A DNA stretch of 64,000 nt from Acinetobacter tianfuensis (GTDB lineage Bacteria; Pseudomonadota; Gammaproteobacteria; Pseudomonadales; Moraxellaceae), in NCBI RefSeq assembly GCF_003611465.1, contig NZ_RAXV01000007.1, positions 1 through 64,000 of the forward strand. The letters run 5' to 3'. This document shows, one piece after another, positions 1 through 62,061 of this stretch. How positions within the stretch are numbered: position 1 is the first letter of the stretch; the number at the start of each line of letters is the position of its first letter. The position numbers and the translations under genes were made by a program. The notes beneath the pieces are model-generated. The model did no database searches and was not told the origin of the DNA. It saw nothing but the letters and a program-made list of their open reading frames with translations.

Positions 1-1178
1 ACATCACCAATATTCACAGGATCTTTAGCTGACAGCCACCAGCCTTTTTGTGCAATATCATCATCATTGCTGCCCAGCCATTTAATTGCCTGCTTTTGCA
101 AACTTAATGACATAGCAGAATCAATTGGCAAGTTATGGATTAAGCCCAATGATTGATTTAAGGTAAGATCAGCAGTAATGCCTTTGATTTTACCGCTCAT
201 ATAAACGTTTTCAAATTTAGAGCCCGTTGGCGCAAGCAAGCATGCAAACAAACTGCAATCTGTCACAGTAGCAGTGACTTTACCGCCCAGCGCAATAACT
301 CCAGTCGGATAACCTGTTACAGGATCATAGGTAACTTGGCCTGCACCTGGATAATTGCTTTTATCATCGCCCAGCAAAATATCCGGCACATTTACCCTTG
401 AAACTAAGGTGACTTGCTTCATACGTGTACCGTTCACAACAATCGCAGGCGTGGTAAACGGATTATTGTTAATATCAGGTATATTAAAACCGCCAGCTGT
501 GGTCTTAAAATCAACTTCCGCCAAACCGCCTAAACCCAACGCCTGCAATCGGCCATTTACAGACAAATTGCCATATTGATTTGTGCCATATAAATTATAG
601 CGAGTCCCTGCTGTACTCGCTAAGCCCTTAATTGTGCCGCTGCTGTCAGACTGAACCTTCATGTAGCCAGACAGGCTGTTGATGCCATTGGGTTTAGAGG
701 AGTTTTCTGTCCCCGTTGTCAGTAAACCTTTAACTTTATCAGCACTTAAGCGAAAACCGACGACTTCCCGCGTTGAAGCGCTATTCGGATTTTTCACAGC
801 AAATTCAATAAAAGGATTGGTCAATTTTGCAGAAGAAGATGCACGGCCATCCGCAGTTGCGCTTTGACCGCTCAAACTGAGATTATCAATATCAATATCA
901 CAGCCGCCTGCGCCATTTGCACCGCCGCAGCCCAGCTTTAAGCTTTTCACATTAATATTCATATCCATTTCAGCATTCATGCCTAATTTATAAAAACCGA
1001 TATTTTCAGCTTTCATTTGTGCATTGGTTTGCGAAGGATCGGTAACCGTTAAGTTTAATAAAGCTTGTCCATTGATATTTGAAAGTTCTTGCTCTTCTAT
1101 TTGGGTCAAGCCCTCTGCCGCCTGTACAGAAGTGAAGGTACAAATAGCAAGAGCGACTGCAAGCGCCGTTTTATTCAT
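1..1178 (-). CDS. Secreted FilA-like/DUF6160-type protein (partial, C-terminus outside window)
   Basis: The reading frame starts at ATG 1178 and stays open to the left edge, so the C-terminus is missing. It begins with a signal peptide (MNKTALAVALAICTF, then a cut near VQAAEG), followed at about residues 22-40 by a segment ending ELSNINGQALLNLTV. That segment is typical of the Acinetobacter secreted family annotated as FilA or DUF6160, which is linked to pilus operons. The rest is Gly/Ser/Thr/Asn-rich and beta-like, with no membrane spans, consistent with a surface or periplasmic protein. The family name is from memory of its N-terminal motif; the function is not established. The next gene upstream is a flavodoxin on the same strand, separated by a terminator, so this gene probably has its own promoter. 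Confidence 0.6.
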   Translation of the reverse strand, partial: MNKTALAVALAICTFTSVQAAEGLTQIEEQELSNINGQALLNLTVTDPSQTNAQMKAENIGFYKLGMNAEMDMNINVKSLKLGCGGANGAGGCDIDIDNLSLSGQSATADGRASSSAKLTNPFIEFAVKNPNSASTREVVGFRLSADKVKGLLTTGTENSSKPNGINSLSGYMKVQSDSSGTIKGLASTAGTRYNLYGTNQYGNLSVNGRLQALGLGGLAEVDFKTTAGGFNIPDINNNPFTTPAIVVNGTRMKQVTLVSRVNVPDILLGDDKSNYPGAGQVTYDPVTGYPTGVIALGGKVTATVTDCSLFACLLAPTGSKFENVYMSGKIKGITADLTLNQSLGLIHNLPIDSAMSLSLQKQAIKWLGSNDDDIAQKGWWLSAKDPVNIGD

Positions 1179-11707: not shown

Positions 11708-11782
11708 AGGGGTATCGCCAAGTGGTAAGGCACCGGGTTTTGATCTCGGCATCCGTTGGTTCGAATCCAGCTACCCCTGCCA
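11708..11782 (+). tRNA. tRNA-Gln (TTG), copy 1
   Basis: 75-base cloverleaf. The acceptor arms AGGGGTA and TACCCCT pair, the anticodon loop holds TTG, GGTTCGAATCC forms the T arm, and CCA is encoded. It begins one base after the ispE stop codon. Confidence 0.97.
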
Positions 11783-11812
11783 TTAACTCACCTGTAACAG
11801 ATGTACTGTATT

Positions 11813-11887
11813 AGGGGTATCGCCAAGTGGTAAGGCACCGGGTTTTGATCTCGGCATCCGTTGGTTCGAATCCAGCTACCCCTGCCA
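11813..11887 (+). tRNA. tRNA-Gln (TTG), copy 2
   Basis: Identical in sequence to copy 1, including the encoded CCA. It is separated from copy 1 by a 30-base spacer. Confidence 0.97.
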
Positions 11888-11907
11888 TTTTACAGTCTCA
11901 TCTCGCT

Positions 11908-11982
11908 AGGGGTATCGCCAAGTGGTAAGGCACCGGGTTTTGATCTCGGCATCCGTTGGTTCGAATCCAGCTACCCCTGCCA
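11908..11982 (+). tRNA. tRNA-Gln (TTG), copy 3
   Basis: Identical to copies 1 and 2, with a 20-base spacer before it. Confidence 0.97.
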
Positions 11983-12033
11983 TTTTCTCAAAAAAGACAG
12001 AGCAATGTTTACGTCAACATTTGTTAAATAAGA

Positions 12034-12062
12034 TTGACAAATTAACGTAAAAATATTAAAGT
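12034..12062 (+). promoter_or_regulatory. Sigma-70-type promoter before tRNA-Gln copy 4 and prs
   Basis: A perfect -35 box TTGACA (12034-12039) is followed by a 17-base spacer and TAAAGT (12057-12062). The predicted start lies within about 5-10 bases of tRNA copy 4. It lies in the longest spacer of the cluster (91 bases) and would feed copy 4 and prs separately from the ispE transcript. Confidence 0.65.
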
Positions 12063-12073
12063 TCTGCCGCATT

Positions 12074-12148
12074 AGGGGTATCGCCAAGTGGTAAGGCACC
12101 GGGTTTTGATCTCGGCATCCGTTGGTTCGAATCCAGCTACCCCTGCCA
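12074..12148 (+). tRNA. tRNA-Gln (TTG), copy 4
   Basis: Identical to copies 1-3. It ends 36 bases before the prs start codon, so prs mRNA is probably released by tRNA 3' processing. Confidence 0.97.
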
Positions 12149-57008: not shown

Positions 57009-59903
57009 ATGACTGATTCAGCGCAAAATATCGCTACTACGTACGATCCAACCGAGATCGAGAAAAAATGGTACCAAACTTGGGAAGAGCGCGGTTACTT
57101 CAAGCCGTCTGAAAAAGGCGAGTCTTTCTGTATCATGATTCCGCCGCCAAACGTCACCGGTAGCTTGCACATGGGTCATGGTTTCAACAATGCCATCATG
57201 GATGCTTTGACTCGCTACAACCGCATGTCAGGTAAAAACACCTTATGGCAGCCGGGTACGGACCACGCAGGTATTGCAACGCAAATGGTTGTAGAGCGTC
57301 AGCTGGGTGCTCAAGGTGTGAGCCGTCATGACTTGGGCCGTGAGAAGTTCATCGAAAAAGTTTGGGAATGGAAAGAACAATCGGGCGGCACAATTACACG
57401 CCAAATCCGCCGCTTGGGTTCTTCTGTAGACTGGTCTCGTGAACGCTTTACCATGGATGACGGTTTATCGAACGCAGTAAAAGAAGTGTTCGTAAAATTA
57501 CACGAAGACGGCTTAATCTACCGCGGTAAACGCCTCGTCAACTGGGATCCAAAATTACAAACTGCCCTTTCTGACTTAGAAGTTGAGTCTGATAAAGAAG
57601 AAGCAGGTTCACTTTGGCACTTCAAATATTTCTTTGAAGACAAATCACTTCGTACCCACGATGGTAAAGATCACATTGTAGTTGCGACAACTCGCCCTGA
57701 AACATTATTAGGTGATACAGCAGTTGCAGTTGCGCTGGATGATGAACGCTATGCGGCGCTTGTTGGCAAAAACATTATTTTGCCAATTACAGGTCGTGCG
57801 GTTCCAATTGTTAAAGATGAATATGTAGACAAAGAATTCGGTACAGGCTGCGTAAAAATTACCCCTGCACATGACTTCAATGACTATGAAGTAGGCAAAC
57901 GCTGTGAACTTCCAATCATCAACATCTTCAACAAAAATGCGGAAGTATTGGCTGAGTTTGAATACATCGCGAAAGCGGGCGAGCAAATTTCTAAGACGAT
58001 TCCTGCCCCTGCGGACTACATTGGCTTAGAGCGTTTTGAAGCGCGTAAAAAGTTAGTCGAACAAGCTGAAAGCGAAGGCTGGTTAGACCAAATTCAACCG
58101 TATACCTTGAAGCCACCTCGCGGTGACCGTTCAGGCGTAATCGTTGAGCCATTACTCACAGACCAATGGTATGTGAAAATTGCGCCGCTTGCTGAGCCTG
58201 CGATTAAAGCGGTTCAAGACGGTCAAATTAAGTTTGTGCCTGAGCAATACAGCAACATGTACATGGCATGGATGAATAACATTCAAGACTGGTGTATTTC
58301 TCGTCAATTGTGGTGGGGTCACCGTATCCCTGCTTGGTACGATGCTGAAGGCAATGTATATGTAGGTCGTTCTGAAGCTGAAGTCCGTGAGAAAAATGGC
58401 ATCCCTGCCGATGTTCAATTAGATCAAGACGAAGACGTGTTAGATACATGGTTCTCTTCGGGTCTTTGGACATTCTCAACTTTAGGTTGGACAGGCGATG
58501 CGAAGAAAGATGCGGAAAACTATTTCTTAAATACTTTCCACCCAACTGATGTACTGGTAACAGGTTTCGACATCATCTTCTTCTGGGTTGCCCGCATGAT
58601 CATGATGACCATGCACTTCATGAAAAATGAAGACGGCACACCGCAAGTTCCGTTCAAAACTGTGTATGTACACGGTTTGGTACGTGATGGCGAAGGTCAG
58701 AAAATGTCTAAATCTAAGGGTAACGTGCTTGACCCATTAGACTTGATTGACGGTATTGACCTTGAAACTTTAGTACAAAAACGTACAACAGGTTTGATGA
58801 ACCCGAAACAAGCGGCGAAGATTGAAAAATCTACCCGTAAAGAATTCCCTGAAGGAATTCAATCTTACGGTACAGATGCCGTTCGTTTCACTTTCTGTGC
58901 GCTTGCGAACACTGGCCGTGACATTAAGTTCGACATGAAGCGTGTTGAAGGTTACCGTAACTTTGCCAACAAAATCTGGAACGCTACCCGTTTCGTGATG
59001 ATGAACTGCGAAGAGCAAGTGATTGGTCAAGAAGTTCGTCAAGACCTTTGGGAATTGCCTGAACAATGGATTGTAAGCCGTCTGCAAAAAGCGGAACAAG
59101 CGGTGCAAACTGCATTTGCGACTTACCGTTTAGACTTAGCTGCACAAGCGATTTACGAGTTCATTTGGAATGAATACTGTGACTGGTATGTTGAGCTGAC
59201 GAAGCCTGTTCTGAATGACGAAAACGTATCGGTTGAACGTAAAGCTGAAGTACGTCGTGTTCTACTTGCTGTGATGGAAGCATCTTTACGTTTGGCTCAC
59301 CCATTGATGCCTTACTTAACAGAAGAAATCTGGCAAACACTTGCGCCAAAACTCAACATTTCTGGCGAAACCATTATGTTGGCGCAGTACCCTGTTGCTG
59401 ATGAAGCAAAAATCAACGAACAAGCTGAAGCAGATATGCAATGGCTGCAAGGTTTAATTGGTGCGGTACGTAACATCCGTGGTGAGATGGGTCTAGGTAA
59501 TGCACGTTTATTACCTGTTCTTCTGCAAAATACCACTGATGCTGAAAAAGCACAGATCACACGTATTGAAGCGTTATTCACTGCATTGGCAAAAGTTGAG
59601 AGCATTACGTTCTTGGCTGATGGTGAACAACCACCATTGTCTTCTTCTTCTGTAGTGGGTCATGTGTCTGTATTCGTTCCAATGAAGGGCTTAATTGACC
59701 CTAAAGCGGAATTGGGTCGTTTGCAAAAAGACTTAGACAAGGTTCAAAAACAGCACGACCAAATTGCCACTAAATTGGGTAATGAAGGTTTTGTGGCGAA
59801 AGCGCCTGCTGCGGTAGTTGAAGGTGAGAAAGTGAAACTTGCTGAATTTTCTGACCAATTAGCGAAGATTAAAGCGAATATGGAGCAAATTGCAGCGCTT
59901 TAA
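57009..59903 (+). CDS. valS: Valyl-tRNA synthetase
   Basis: 964 residues, ATG at 57009. Class I motifs are intact: [13 protein letters not shown] (HIGH-type) and [10 protein letters not shown] (KMSKS). The editing domain between them contains [15 protein letters not shown], and the C-terminal coiled coil ([20 protein letters not shown]) closes the protein. It charges tRNA-Val and removes mischarged Thr. A strong terminator follows, right before the SIR2 gene. Confidence 0.96.
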
Positions 59904-59930
59904 TGTGTTGTTAACTTGATCTAATTTGTG

Positions 59931-59960
59931 TATAAAGGGCTGATTATTCAGCCCTTTATA
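59931..59960 (+). terminator. Terminator of valS
   Basis: TATAAAGGGCTGA and TCAGCCCTTTATA form a perfect 13-base stem with a four-base loop, followed by CTTTTAT. It ends only 8 bases before the SIR2 gene start codon. Confidence 0.85.
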
Positions 59961-59968
59961 CTTTTATA

Positions 59969-61663
59969 ATGACAAATCAATATATTAAATATTTCCCTAA
60001 ACCATTTTTAGAAGATCTCATAGAAGGTCATGTTTTTCCTATTGTCGGTGCAGGATTTTCAAGGAATGCCAAAAGTGATGATAATAAGCCAAGCCGCGAC
60101 TGGGATGAGTTAGGCCGTTATTTTGCAGAAGATATTGTTGATTATAAATATAATGGTGCTATTGATGCTATTTCAGCATTTGAATACGAATACTCAAGAT
60201 CAAAGCTGGTAGAAAAAATGTATTCTGCCTTAAAAATTGGTTCTATACATCCTGATTTAGCACATAAATCATTTGCAAAACTACCTTTCCAATTAGTAGC
60301 AACTACCAACTTTGATTATTTACTTGAAGAATCTTATACACATTTAGGAAACCGATTTTGCAGAACAATAATTGATGAAGAGCAACTACCAATTATCAAT
60401 AAAGATATTAAACATCTAAACTTATTAAAAATACATGGAGATTTAAGTCATCCATCCAGGTTAATTGCTACTGAAGAGGACTATGATAGTTTTTTAACTA
60501 AATTCCCAATGATTGCAACATATATCACCAACCAATTTATATCTAAAACAGTATTATTTATAGGTTATAGTGTAGATGATAATGACATACGACAAATTTT
60601 CCAGATGATAAAAGATAGACTAGGAAAATTAAAGCGAAGAGCCTATACCATTAGAATTAATGCATCTACACAAGAAATAAATAGATTTACGAGAAGGGGG
60701 ATTAAAGTAATCAACATTCCCATTATATCTGAAAAAATAGATTATAATAAAACTTTCTCTGAAATATTTGATGAGCTTCATAATTACTGGACTAATAACA
60801 TACCTAATAATGCAACTGAAGAAGACTCAAACATTGATCTAAAGCTTGCTAAAATCCACTCTAAAAATGTCAGTCGACTATCTTTTTTCTCAGTTGGGAA
60901 TGAAGACTTACCTTACTTTAAAAGTAATTTTTTCCCTATATTTTATAAATATGGATTTACACCAGTTACACCTGATGATTTTTTGGATTCAAACGATAAT
61001 TATATTGCAAGAGTTCAATCATTAATTAATGTATCTAATTTATGTTTAGCAGATTTTACCTCCTCATCTAATGACCGATTACAAGAAACTGAATTCCTGA
61101 TAGAAAAAGTTATCACATCAAAAAGTGACTTTCATTTAATTATTGCAGTAGATACCAACAACTTATTTAGTAAAAATAAATTTTACAATTCATTAAACAA
61201 TTTAAATGAAGAAAGTTTTGAAAAGATAAAAGCTAGAGTCCACTTCATAAACTTTAATAAAGGATTAAATCAACTAGATTTCAATCAACTTGAAGATATC
61301 TTAAAATCTATATCTGATCGAGTGTATGATCAATTCGATAATGAAATAGAAAATTTATTTAAAAGTAAACAATATGATATCGCATTATTGATGGGTTATA
61401 TTACTTTTGAGAAATCATTAAGAAATTTTTATAAAGACTCTCGTTTCTCATCTTATAAACTCTCGGACAGACTCATTAAGGATGAAATTATTTCTTTCGC
61501 CGAAGCCGAGATATTGATTGAAGCTCGAAACTTGAGAAATAACATAGCTCATGGACTTAATGAACATAAATTAAATAAGGATGTCGTAAAAAAATATCTA
61601 AATTTTTTCAAAATGATTCAAAAACGATTAGTATCTGAGTCCCCAATAGCTAAAGACTCATAA
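59969..61663 (+). CDS. SIR2-domain protein with Rossmann-like and HEPN-like domains (candidate phage-defence gene)
   Basis: 564 residues, ATG at 59969, with no clear ribosome site because the valS terminator ends 8 bases upstream. Residues 1-270 form a SIR2 domain: VGAGFS (26-31), TTNFDYLLEE (112-121) with Asn114, KIHGD (154-158) with His156, and FIGYSVDDND (198-207). These are the NAD-binding and catalytic points of defence-type SIR2 NADases. Residues about 303-430 look like a nucleoside deoxyribosyltransferase/TIR-type Rossmann domain: FFSVGNED, YGFTPVTPDDF, SNLCLADFTSSSND, then ETEF. Residues about 460-555 are helical with NLRNNIAHG, giving R523-x4-H528 as in HEPN RNases. The gene is far more AT-rich than its neighbours (14 G/C in 60 at 60541-60600, against 27 in 60 at 59041-59100 in valS). 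Defence is inference. Confidence 0.8.
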   Translation: MTNQYIKYFPKPFLEDLIEGHVFPIVGAGFSRNAKSDDNKPSRDWDELGRYFAEDIVDYKYNGAIDAISAFEYEYSRSKLVEKMYSALKIGSIHPDLAHKSFAKLPFQLVATTNFDYLLEESYTHLGNRFCRTIIDEEQLPIINKDIKHLNLLKIHGDLSHPSRLIATEEDYDSFLTKFPMIATYITNQFISKTVLFIGYSVDDNDIRQIFQMIKDRLGKLKRRAYTIRINASTQEINRFTRRGIKVINIPIISEKIDYNKTFSEIFDELHNYWTNNIPNNATEEDSNIDLKLAKIHSKNVSRLSFFSVGNEDLPYFKSNFFPIFYKYGFTPVTPDDFLDSNDNYIARVQSLINVSNLCLADFTSSSNDRLQETEFLIEKVITSKSDFHLIIAVDTNNLFSKNKFYNSLNNLNEESFEKIKARVHFINFNKGLNQLDFNQLEDILKSISDRVYDQFDNEIENLFKSKQYDIALLMGYITFEKSLRNFYKDSRFSSYKLSDRLIKDEIISFAEAEILIEARNLRNNIAHGLNEHKLNKDVVKKYLNFFKMIQKRLVSESPIAKDS

Positions 61664-61664
61664 A

Positions 61665-61760
61665 TCATTTAGCACGAAGGATTTGCCATATCATCTGTTC
61701 TGCATCAGTAGCAGTGTGGCGCATAGTTTTGGCGAATATTAAAAGTTGGGGGTCGATCAT
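61665..61760 (-). pseudogene. Truncated DUF559 endonuclease-like gene, N-terminal remnant
   Basis: From ATG 61760 a 31-codon frame reads MIDPQLLIFAKTMRHTA then TDAEQMIWQILRAK before TGA. That is the N-terminus of DUF559 proteins (typical LR-x-TDAE-x-LLW-x-LR), which normally continue for about 90 more residues. The frame breaks at the position where the SIR2 gene ends, two bases away, so the SIR2 insertion probably replaced the rest. Confidence 0.72.
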
Positions 61761-62061
61761 TTTTCTTATTATTCCAATTTTAAATTTTATTCAATTATAC
61801 GATACACAAAGAAGTTCCCTCTCCTTTTAGGAGATGAGCAGCACTGCTGCGCAAGGGAGAGGTAATGAAGTTAATATTTCTCATGAATTCTACCCCTCCC
61901 CCCAAGGGAGAGGGAGAAAAGCGTCACAGCACATTACACAAAATAAAAAGGCCGCTAAACAGCGGCCTTTTTACAACACATAATTTTTATGACTAACACC
62001 ATGTATAACTTATAACTCATAAATTTATAGGCAACAAAGCATTAATCACAGCATAAGCAGA
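61761..62061. other. Intergenic stretch with pyrimidine/purine-rich repeats
   Basis: No gene is visible. Two copies of a CCCTCTCC / GGGAGAGG pattern occur: TTCCCTCTCC at 61815-61824 with GGGAGAGG at 61855-61862, and CCCTCCCCCC with GGGAGAGGG at about 61903-61922. Such short elements often accompany DUF559 genes in intergenic DNA. The groESL terminator lies at the right end. Confidence 0.55.
61945..61973 (-). terminator. Terminator of groESL
   Basis: AAAAAGGCCGCT and AGCGGCCTTTTT form a perfect 12-base stem with a four-base loop. Confidence 0.9.

What the first reader, a model, noticed from the sequence alone, without database searches (positions are those of the whole stretch)
59969..61663. 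Three-domain SIR2 / Rossmann-like / HEPN-like protein, a candidate new single-gene defence system
Seen: GAGFS, TTNFD, KIHGD and GYSVDDND motifs of a SIR2 domain; a middle part with the deoxyribosyltransferase/TIR-type layout (SNLCLADFT followed by an acidic strand); and a C-terminal helical part with R523-x4-H528. Known: SIR2 effectors in Thoeris, DSR, Avs5 and SPARSA destroy NAD during phage attack, and HEPN domains are RNases in many defence and toxin systems. Inferred: one protein would combine an NADase, a nucleotide-binding or second NAD-handling domain, and a possible RNase. I do not know a named system with this exact order.
Basis: partly seen in the sequence, partly recalled or inferred. 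Interest (0 to 1): 0.85.

Follow-up and report, generated by a model that had tools for sequence, protein, structure and literature searches.

The report
Solitary SIR2–TIR-like–HEPN defence protein
A bacterial gene encodes one protein that joins an NAD-destroying type (SIR2) domain, a TIR-like nucleotide domain and an RNA-cutting type (HEPN) domain; it looks like an unnamed single-gene defence against viruses, spread patchily through many bacterial phyla.

Summary
The ORF at 59969-61663 (+, 564 aa) has every motif at the stated residue. Confident predicted structures (pLDDT 88.1 and 88.9) give three domains: SIR2 (about 1-282; PDB Z up to 27, ThsA and KomC), a TIR/DNPH1-type Rossmannoid domain (about 300-432; Z about 13) and a HEPN bundle (about 438-557; Z 11.2, 105 residues, 2.4 A). 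Forty further intact homologues, in ten phyla, align over all three domains. N114 and H156 are invariant in 42 of 42 rows, the TIR-position Glu373 in 37, HEPN R523 in 42 and H528 in 40, although the C-terminal domain averages 25% pairwise identity. No neighbour family occurs in more than 3 of 44 loci. Here and in one congener the gene stands behind valS, a site whose cargo changes across 40 sampled congeners and includes Septu-, TIR- and KAP-like genes. No Pfam, PADLOC or NCBIfam model spans the window protein's three domains. Best reading: an unnamed solitary abortive-infection protein, ThsA-like in its NADase but with TIR-like plus HEPN behind it. No activity has been measured.

The parts
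59969..61663 (+). whole gene, 564 aa: SIR2 - TIR/deoxyribosyltransferase-like - HEPN
   Evidence: full-length model pLDDT 88.1, pTM 0.87
59969..60814 (+). SIR2 NADase-type domain, about residues 1-282
   Evidence: SIR2_2 E 8.2e-25; VIA Z 27.0 to ThsA (358 aligned over two domains, rmsd 10.4) and 26.9 to KomC (251 aligned, rmsd 2.6)
60308..60310 (+). Asn114, aligned with the ThsA Asn that reads Ala in entry 8bto
   Evidence: phmmer alignments; 42 of 42 rows
60434..60436 (+). His156, aligned with KomC His146 (H146N in 9xvc)
   Evidence: 42 of 42 rows
60866..61264 (+). TIR / DNPH1-like Rossmannoid domain with five strands, about residues 300-432
   Evidence: models; VIA Z 13.4 (IL-1RAcPb TIR), 13.3 (DNPH1), 12.2 (SPARTA TIR); Pfam in relatives
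61085..61087 (+). Glu373, in the helix after strand 3, where this clade has its active site
   Evidence: 37 of 42 rows; secondary structure; location of the active site from PMC9503650 section 15
61280..61639 (+). HEPN domain, about residues 438-557
   Evidence: VIA Z 11.2 to 2hsb HEPN, rmsd 2.4, 105 aligned of 126; DUF4145 23.4 bits, cut-off 23.1
61535..61552 (+). R523-N524-x3-H528, the HEPN RNase motif Rx4-6H
   Evidence: R 42, N 39, H 40 of 42 rows
59930..59961 (+). terminator-like hairpin (14 pairs) behind valS, ending 7 bases before the ATG
57009..59903 (+). valS, left border of the variable-cargo site
   Evidence: its 3' end found in 59 of 59 genus genomes, own included
61669..61764 (-). 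remnant of the DUF559-type gene that often borders the cargo on the right (family name recalled)
   Evidence: 81% over 96 bases to L002; such an ORF in 15 of 40 regions

Best explanation
A solitary anti-phage (abortive-infection type) protein. The N-terminal SIR2 domain is an NAD+-cleaving effector of the ThsA/KomC/DSR2 kind. The middle domain, of the TIR-DrHyd-SLOG clade, sits where ThsA has its SLOG ligand sensor and most likely binds or processes a nucleotide that marks infection, gating the SIR2 domain. The C-terminal HEPN domain is most likely a second effector, a metal-independent RNase, released by the same switch; being the fastest-diverging part it may also carry recognition of the trigger. 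Shown here: predicted folds, conserved catalytic-type residues, conservation over full length, no shared partner gene, patchy spread with one cross-phylum placement, cargo-site and phage-contig context. Inferred: NAD cleavage, RNA cleavage, gating, defence.
For: SIR2 fold and sequence, with catalytic positions aligned to residues changed in solved structures. TIR/DNPH1 fold with Glu373 in 37 of 42 rows. HEPN fold with R-N-x3-H and the second element E-x3-R (E481 41 of 42, R485 32 of 42), both described in PMC3710099, at 25.4% mean pairwise identity: these residues are held while the rest drifts. 42 of 42 rows, one with a stop, align over all three domains. No neighbour family in more than 3 of 44 loci. 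Variable site behind valS with PtuA, HNH, TIR and KAP matches. Intact copy on a viral-collection contig about 1.1 kb from a major head protein gene. Rare: 2 of 398 genomes of the phylum sample at E <= 1e-40, one being the window's own; full length in 2 of 149 genus genomes, own included. The window and its congener branch with Pedobacter (99/96), not with the other Pseudomonadota. Five further-apart loci hold broken copies.
Against: No activity measured. The window's own middle domain has no Pfam match, and 5 of 42 rows lack Glu373. Two actinobacterial rows, one clade, lack both Glu373 and His528 but keep the SIR2 residues, so those sites were dispensable at least once. Homologue neighbourhoods give only modest defence signals: at E <= 1e-15 the PADLOC tally of 147 neighbours is headed by type II (3) and III (2) methyltransferases, with single HEC-05 and PDC matches; the lists show 25 of 155 and 25 of 146 families, and no control set was scanned. 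Foldseek alone gave no match at E <= 0.001 for residues 286-564, and Z 11.2 for the HEPN part is under the 13 that the tool advises for helical bundles. The tree flags odd residue make-up and a 1.64 stem for the window pair. Frame breaks may be sequencing errors.
Confidence: 0.58

Rival explanations
1. SIR2 is the only effector; the TIR-like and HEPN domains are non-catalytic sensor or assembly parts, in the way that SLOG of ThsA is a sensor.
For: Identity falls from SIR2 to HEPN (window vs L002: 82.8, 42.7, 33.1%; means over 861 pairs 49.3, 29.7, 25.4%), as expected of a recognition end. One clade lost Glu373 and His528 together while SIR2 residues stayed.
Against: R523 in 42, N524 in 39, H528 in 40 and E373 in 37 of 42 rows, against a 25-30% identity background, is hard to explain unless those residues act or bind.
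Confidence: 0.27
2. A toxin or exclusion gene that serves its own mobile carrier rather than a dedicated phage defence of the cell.
For: Two plasmid copies, one frameshifted, and one on a viral-collection contig.
Against: No antitoxin-like neighbour family in more than 3 of 44 loci; in the window it lies at a chromosomal valS site. Which of the other loci are chromosomal was not tested.
Confidence: 0.1
3. A housekeeping sirtuin or NAD-metabolism enzyme.
For: Lies between valS and groL in the window.
Against: No match in 127 of 149 genus genomes and full length in only 2; the content behind valS changes between genomes; best structural matches are defence SIR2s (Z up to 27), with archaeal sirtuin at 14.
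Confidence: 0.03

Closest known systems
Thoeris ThsA (SIR2-SLOG)
   Same: Best PADLOC match (E 2.7e-29) and top PDB matches; SIR2 first, Rossmannoid domain second; catalytic Asn and His align
   Different: The PADLOC match ends with SIR2 (residue 236); the middle domain ranks with TIR and DNPH1; an extra HEPN domain; no ThsB-like neighbour recurs
DSR1 / DSR2
   Same: SIR2 domain first, single protein (Dsr2 E 5e-22, residues 15-275)
   Different: 564 against about 1200 aa; Dsr2 NCBIfam score 76.7 against cut-off 1400
KomC (Kongming; system name recalled)
   Same: SIR2 Z 26.9; His156 aligns with KomC His146
   Different: KomC chain is SIR2 alone, 264 aa, solved in complex with KomB; here two more domains in one chain
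HEPN RNases (DUF4145, RiboL-PSP, HepT-like)
   Same: Fold and R-N-x3-H plus E-x3-R
   Different: The 2013 HEPN survey lists a DUF4145 fusion with TIR and ATPase; the string Sir2 does not occur in its main text (the word sirtuin was not searched)
TIR / DrHyd domains (SPARTA TIR, CAP12 TIR, DNPH1)
   Same: Fold, and Glu in the helix after strand 3
   Different: Placed between SIR2 and HEPN; the window's copy is too diverged for Pfam

Membership tests
SIR2_2 / defence SIR2 NADase | SIR2 fold and family score | tested here: met
   88 bits over cut-off 24.5; Z up to 27
SIR2_2 / defence SIR2 NADase | catalytic Asn and His | tested here: met
   N114 aligns with the position that is Asn in 6lhx and Ala in 8bto, H156 with the one that is Asn in KomC(H146N) 9xvc; 42 of 42 rows
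SIR2_2 / defence SIR2 NADase | NAD+ cleavage | not testable with these tools
   needs an enzyme assay
Thoeris (ThsA) | SLOG domain behind SIR2 | tested here: inconclusive
   ThsA profile matches only residues 3-236; the middle domain ranks with TIR and DNPH1, but SLOG belongs to the same clade and absence from 50 rows excludes nothing
Thoeris (ThsA) | adjacent ThsB-type TIR gene | tested here: not met
   none beside the window gene or L002; no neighbour family in more than 3 of 44 loci; TIR_2 in 3 of 147 neighbours
DSR1/DSR2 | whole-protein match | tested here: not met
   76.7 and 14.5 bits against 1400
HEPN superfamily | HEPN helical fold | tested here: met
   2hsb Z 11.2, rmsd 2.4, 105 aligned, below the tool's advised 13 for helical bundles; DUF4145 over cut-off for residues 286-564 supports it independently
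HEPN superfamily | Rx4-6H with N, D or H after R; often a second Ex3[KR] | tested here: met
   R523 42, N524 39, H528 40, E481 41, R485 32 of 42; definition from PMC3710099 passages
HEPN superfamily | RNase activity | not testable with these tools
   needs an assay
[quoted passage not shown]
   five strands in the model; E373 in 37 of 42; Z about 13 to TIR and DNPH1; definition PMC9503650
TIR-DrHyd-SLOG clade | catalysis on NAD or nucleotides | not testable with these tools
   inactive versions act as sensors (PMC9503650)

The most novel reading that the evidence does not exclude
One polypeptide holds three catalytic activities in a single switch: the TIR-like domain makes or breaks an NAD-derived signal that acts in cis (a one-protein Thoeris), turning on both SIR2 NAD depletion and HEPN RNA cleavage, so that a phage must beat two different death mechanisms at once.
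Probability: 0.2. Interest if true: 0.85.

Novelty: new variant of a known kind. Interest (0 to 1): 0.62.

Why it matters
SIR2, TIR and HEPN are each well-known effectors of bacterial immunity, usually described in separate proteins. A widespread single gene that joins all three in a fixed order gives a compact system in which the link between signal nucleotide, NAD depletion and RNA cleavage could be tested in one protein with point mutants, and it would add a family not covered by the PADLOC 2023 and NCBIfam models used here.

Tried and rejected
Housekeeping role: set aside from patchy presence and the changing site. ThsB or other partner gene: sought by all-against-all comparison of up to four neighbours on each side; the largest shared family is a gene, HTH by eye, in three related loci (L057, L059, L060), ten other families being shared by two loci each. 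The own-sequence scan of genome contigs found no relative; the alignment-based one did. The first viral scan found none; the second found L154 and two partial SIR2-type matches. L080 and L081 match in the SIR2 part and were left out. Nine of the 48 family loci were kept out of the alignments: L040 (same place as L031), L054, L059, L063 (taken as near-copies; not measured), L056, L066 (cut by contig ends), L071, L076, L078 (broken). Foldseek alone on residues 286-564 gave weak E-values mixed with unrelated rows such as arginine decarboxylase; the VIA second look was clearer. No SLOG chain is named in the 50 rows, which excludes nothing. Six of 153 neighbour proteins were dropped before for size limits: four of L030, one of L046, one of L072. 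Regions behind valS were fetched for 40 of the 58 other genomes. The joint loss of Glu373 and His528 in L075 and L079 is one event on the tree, not two.

Full report
What is there. The window carries an intact ORF at 59969-61663 (+), 564 aa, between valS and groL. The genome looks like Acinetobacter by gene content; that name, and the names valS and groL, are recalled, no call gives them. It is the only SIR2_2 match in its assembly.

Domains. SIR2_2 scores 88 bits against a cut-off of 24.5. Two AlphaFold2 models are confident: full length, 42 rows, pLDDT 88.1, pTM 0.87; residues 286-564, 41 rows, pLDDT 88.9, pTM 0.83. The full model matches ThsA (Z up to 27.0), KomC (26.9, 251 aligned, rmsd 2.6), DSR2 (about 22-25), SPARSA and Avs5 (up to 21), human FAM118B (18.7), SIR2/HerA (14-17) and an archaeal sirtuin (14.0). 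The ThsA match runs over 2..448 at rmsd 10.4, so a Rossmannoid domain follows SIR2 in both, differently placed. Residues 286-564 match TIR domains (IL-1RAcPb Z 13.4, SPARTA 12.2, RUN1 11.8) and DNPH1 (13.3) in the middle part, and HEPN protein 2hsb (Z 11.2, 105 of 126 residues, rmsd 2.4) at the C-terminus. Foldseek alone is weak (best E 6.5e-3, unrelated rows among the first ten).

Conservation. Forty-two rows, one of which (L002) has an in-frame stop, were aligned. T112, T113, N114, K154, H156, G157 and D158 are identical in all 42. N114 lies at the ThsA position that is Asn in 6lhx and Ala in 8bto, H156 at the KomC position that is Asn in the H146N entry 9xvc. In the middle domain residue 362 is D in 33 and E in 8, and 373 is E in 37 of 42; 373 lies in the helix after the third of five strands, where the TIR-DrHyd-SLOG clade has its active residues according to PMC9503650 (section 15 read). 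In the HEPN domain R523 is kept in 42, N524 in 39, H528 in 40, E481 in 41, R485 in 32. PMC3710099 (passages) gives Rx4-6H with N, D or H after R, and in many families a second Ex3[KR], as HEPN features. Mean pairwise identity over 861 pairs is 49.3% in SIR2, 29.7% in the middle and 25.4% in HEPN; for the window against L002 it is 82.8, 42.7 and 33.1%. So catalytic-type positions are held in the parts that drift most.

Family matches of relatives. Of 43 members scanned (E <= 0.1): SIR2_2 43, HEPN_RiboL-PSP 10, DUF4145 9, TIR_2 9, Hypoth_Ymh 6, HepT-like 4, CAP12 TIR 3, TIR 2, Nuc_deoxyrib_tr 2. With residues 286-564 alone (41 members, E <= 1): HEPN_RiboL-PSP 21, TIR_2 15, DUF4145 14, Hypoth_Ymh 13, CAP12 6, TIR 6, Nuc_deoxyrib_tr 2. 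Many of these are weak and some chance matches stand beside them. Scores of this part were shown for 11 members: over a Pfam cut-off are DUF4145 in the window (23.4 against 23.1) and TIR in L062 (21.9 against 21.3); one of the ten, L060, matches nothing. For the window protein, PADLOC matches lie within SIR2; for the other members ranges were not shown, and a few match TIR-effector and CARF_HEPN models (4 of 43 each).

Spread. The alignment-based genome-contig scan gave 50 loci, 48 of this family. The tree rows fall in ten named phyla: Pseudomonadota, Bacillota, Bacteroidota, Actinomycetota, Acidobacteriota, Cyanobacteriota, Fibrobacterota, Gemmatimonadota, Kiritimatiellota and Thermodesulfobacteriota as the tool labels them; a broken copy is in an archaeal bin (L078). 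Plasmid records gave two. It is rare: 2 of 398 phylum genomes at E <= 1e-40, the own one included; 22 of 149 genus genomes match, 2 of them full length, own included. On the tree the window and L002 join Pedobacter (99/96) within a mainly Bacteroidota group, apart from the other Pseudomonadota rows, which suggests transfer; the pair has odd residue make-up and a long stem. Broken copies: L002 (stop), L030, L071, L076 and L078 (frame breaks), as for genes that cost their host, if these are not sequencing errors.

Context. In the window the ATG lies 7 bases after a 14-pair terminator-like hairpin behind valS. L002, 61% identical, lies behind valS in another genome. The 3' end of valS was found in 59 of 59 genus genomes. 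Regions behind it were fetched for 40 of the 58 others: in 35 of 40 a conserved gene closes the site, with 0 to 5 changing ORFs of 90 aa or more before it, not counting the DUF559-type gene present in 15. Of 79 cargo proteins, AAA_15 is in 12, HNH in 6, methyltransferase families in up to 5, KAP in 3, integrase core in 3, transposase DDE in 3, TIR_2 in 2; PtuA model PDLC00268 (Septu) is in 9, best E 9.8e-107. In the window a remnant of the DUF559-type gene follows, then groL, so the right side was rearranged; the best match to the closing gene lies on another contig at 46% identity, while in the genome of L002 it lies just downstream at 76%. Among homologues elsewhere, 44 loci with 318 neighbours share no family in more than three loci. 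PADLOC on 147 near neighbours (E <= 1e-15; 25 of 155 families shown) lists type II methyltransferases (3), type III (2), mad3 (2), HEC-05, PDC-M11A, PDC-S68, PDC-S73; Pfam (25 of 146 shown) lists N6_N4_Mtase 3, TIR_2 3, HTH_3 3, nSTAND3 2, FRG 2, Phage_integrase 2, beside ordinary metabolic families. No control set was scanned, so enrichment is not claimed. A viral-collection contig (L154) has an intact copy with N114, H156, R523, N524 and H528, about 1.1 kb from a major head protein gene (E 6.6e-54) and in the same stretch as a scaffolding protein gene (E 4.2e-12).

Mechanism. The SIR2 part most likely cleaves NAD+, as in its nearest solved relatives. The middle domain takes the place that SLOG has in ThsA. 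A review passage (PMC12948488) says that gcADPR made by ThsB binds SLOG and, through filament assembly, switches SIR2 on; by analogy the middle domain here would bind or process the trigger nucleotide. HEPN would be a second, RNA-cutting effector, or part of the sensor. Residue conservation favours catalysis; the divergence gradient and the one clade that lost both Glu373 and His528 while keeping SIR2 favour a sensor. I give the two-effector reading 0.58 and the SIR2-only reading 0.27.

Known or new. Nine searches of the open-access library on the architecture listed no paper that I could tie to a SIR2-HEPN or SIR2-TIR-HEPN protein. Passages were read in PMC9122126, PMC10952713, PMC3710099, PMC9503650, PMC3506569, PMC12657218 and PMC12948488; the other listed papers were seen in the listings only. 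PMC9122126 speaks of uncharacterized systems with SIR2, TIR or HEPN domains in a P4 hotspot without naming this combination in the passages seen; its tables were not seen. No NCBIfam, PADLOC or Pfam model spans the window protein. Each domain and its use in defence is known; the fixed combination in one solitary gene is, as far as could be searched, not named. Hence a new variant of a known kind.

Noticed in passing
59930-59975: The valS terminator-like stem ends 7 bases before the ATG, TATAAT (59965-59970) overlaps the start codon and no Shine-Dalgarno is visible; how the gene is transcribed and started is unclear. In L002 the matching hairpin ends about 12 bases before its ATG.
   Followed up: partly
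downstream of valS in L112-L151: The space between valS and a conserved gene is a variable-cargo site across the genus, with Septu-like, KAP, TIR, transposase and (by eye) caspase-like genes; it may deserve a survey of its own.
   Followed up: partly
L154 3180-4814: A contig of the viral collection carries an intact full-length homologue near phage head genes; whether it is a phage or a prophage was not settled.
   Followed up: partly
L075, L079: Two actinobacterial members keep the SIR2 residues but have lost both the TIR-position Glu and the HEPN His: a natural test of what those two sites do.
   Followed up: no
L029 5230-11608: The Agrobacterium fabrum plasmid copy lies behind genes annotated multiubiquitin, ThiF and dCTP deaminase, perhaps a defence cluster.
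   Followed up: no
11708-12148: Four tRNA-Gln (ttg) genes in a row.
   Followed up: no
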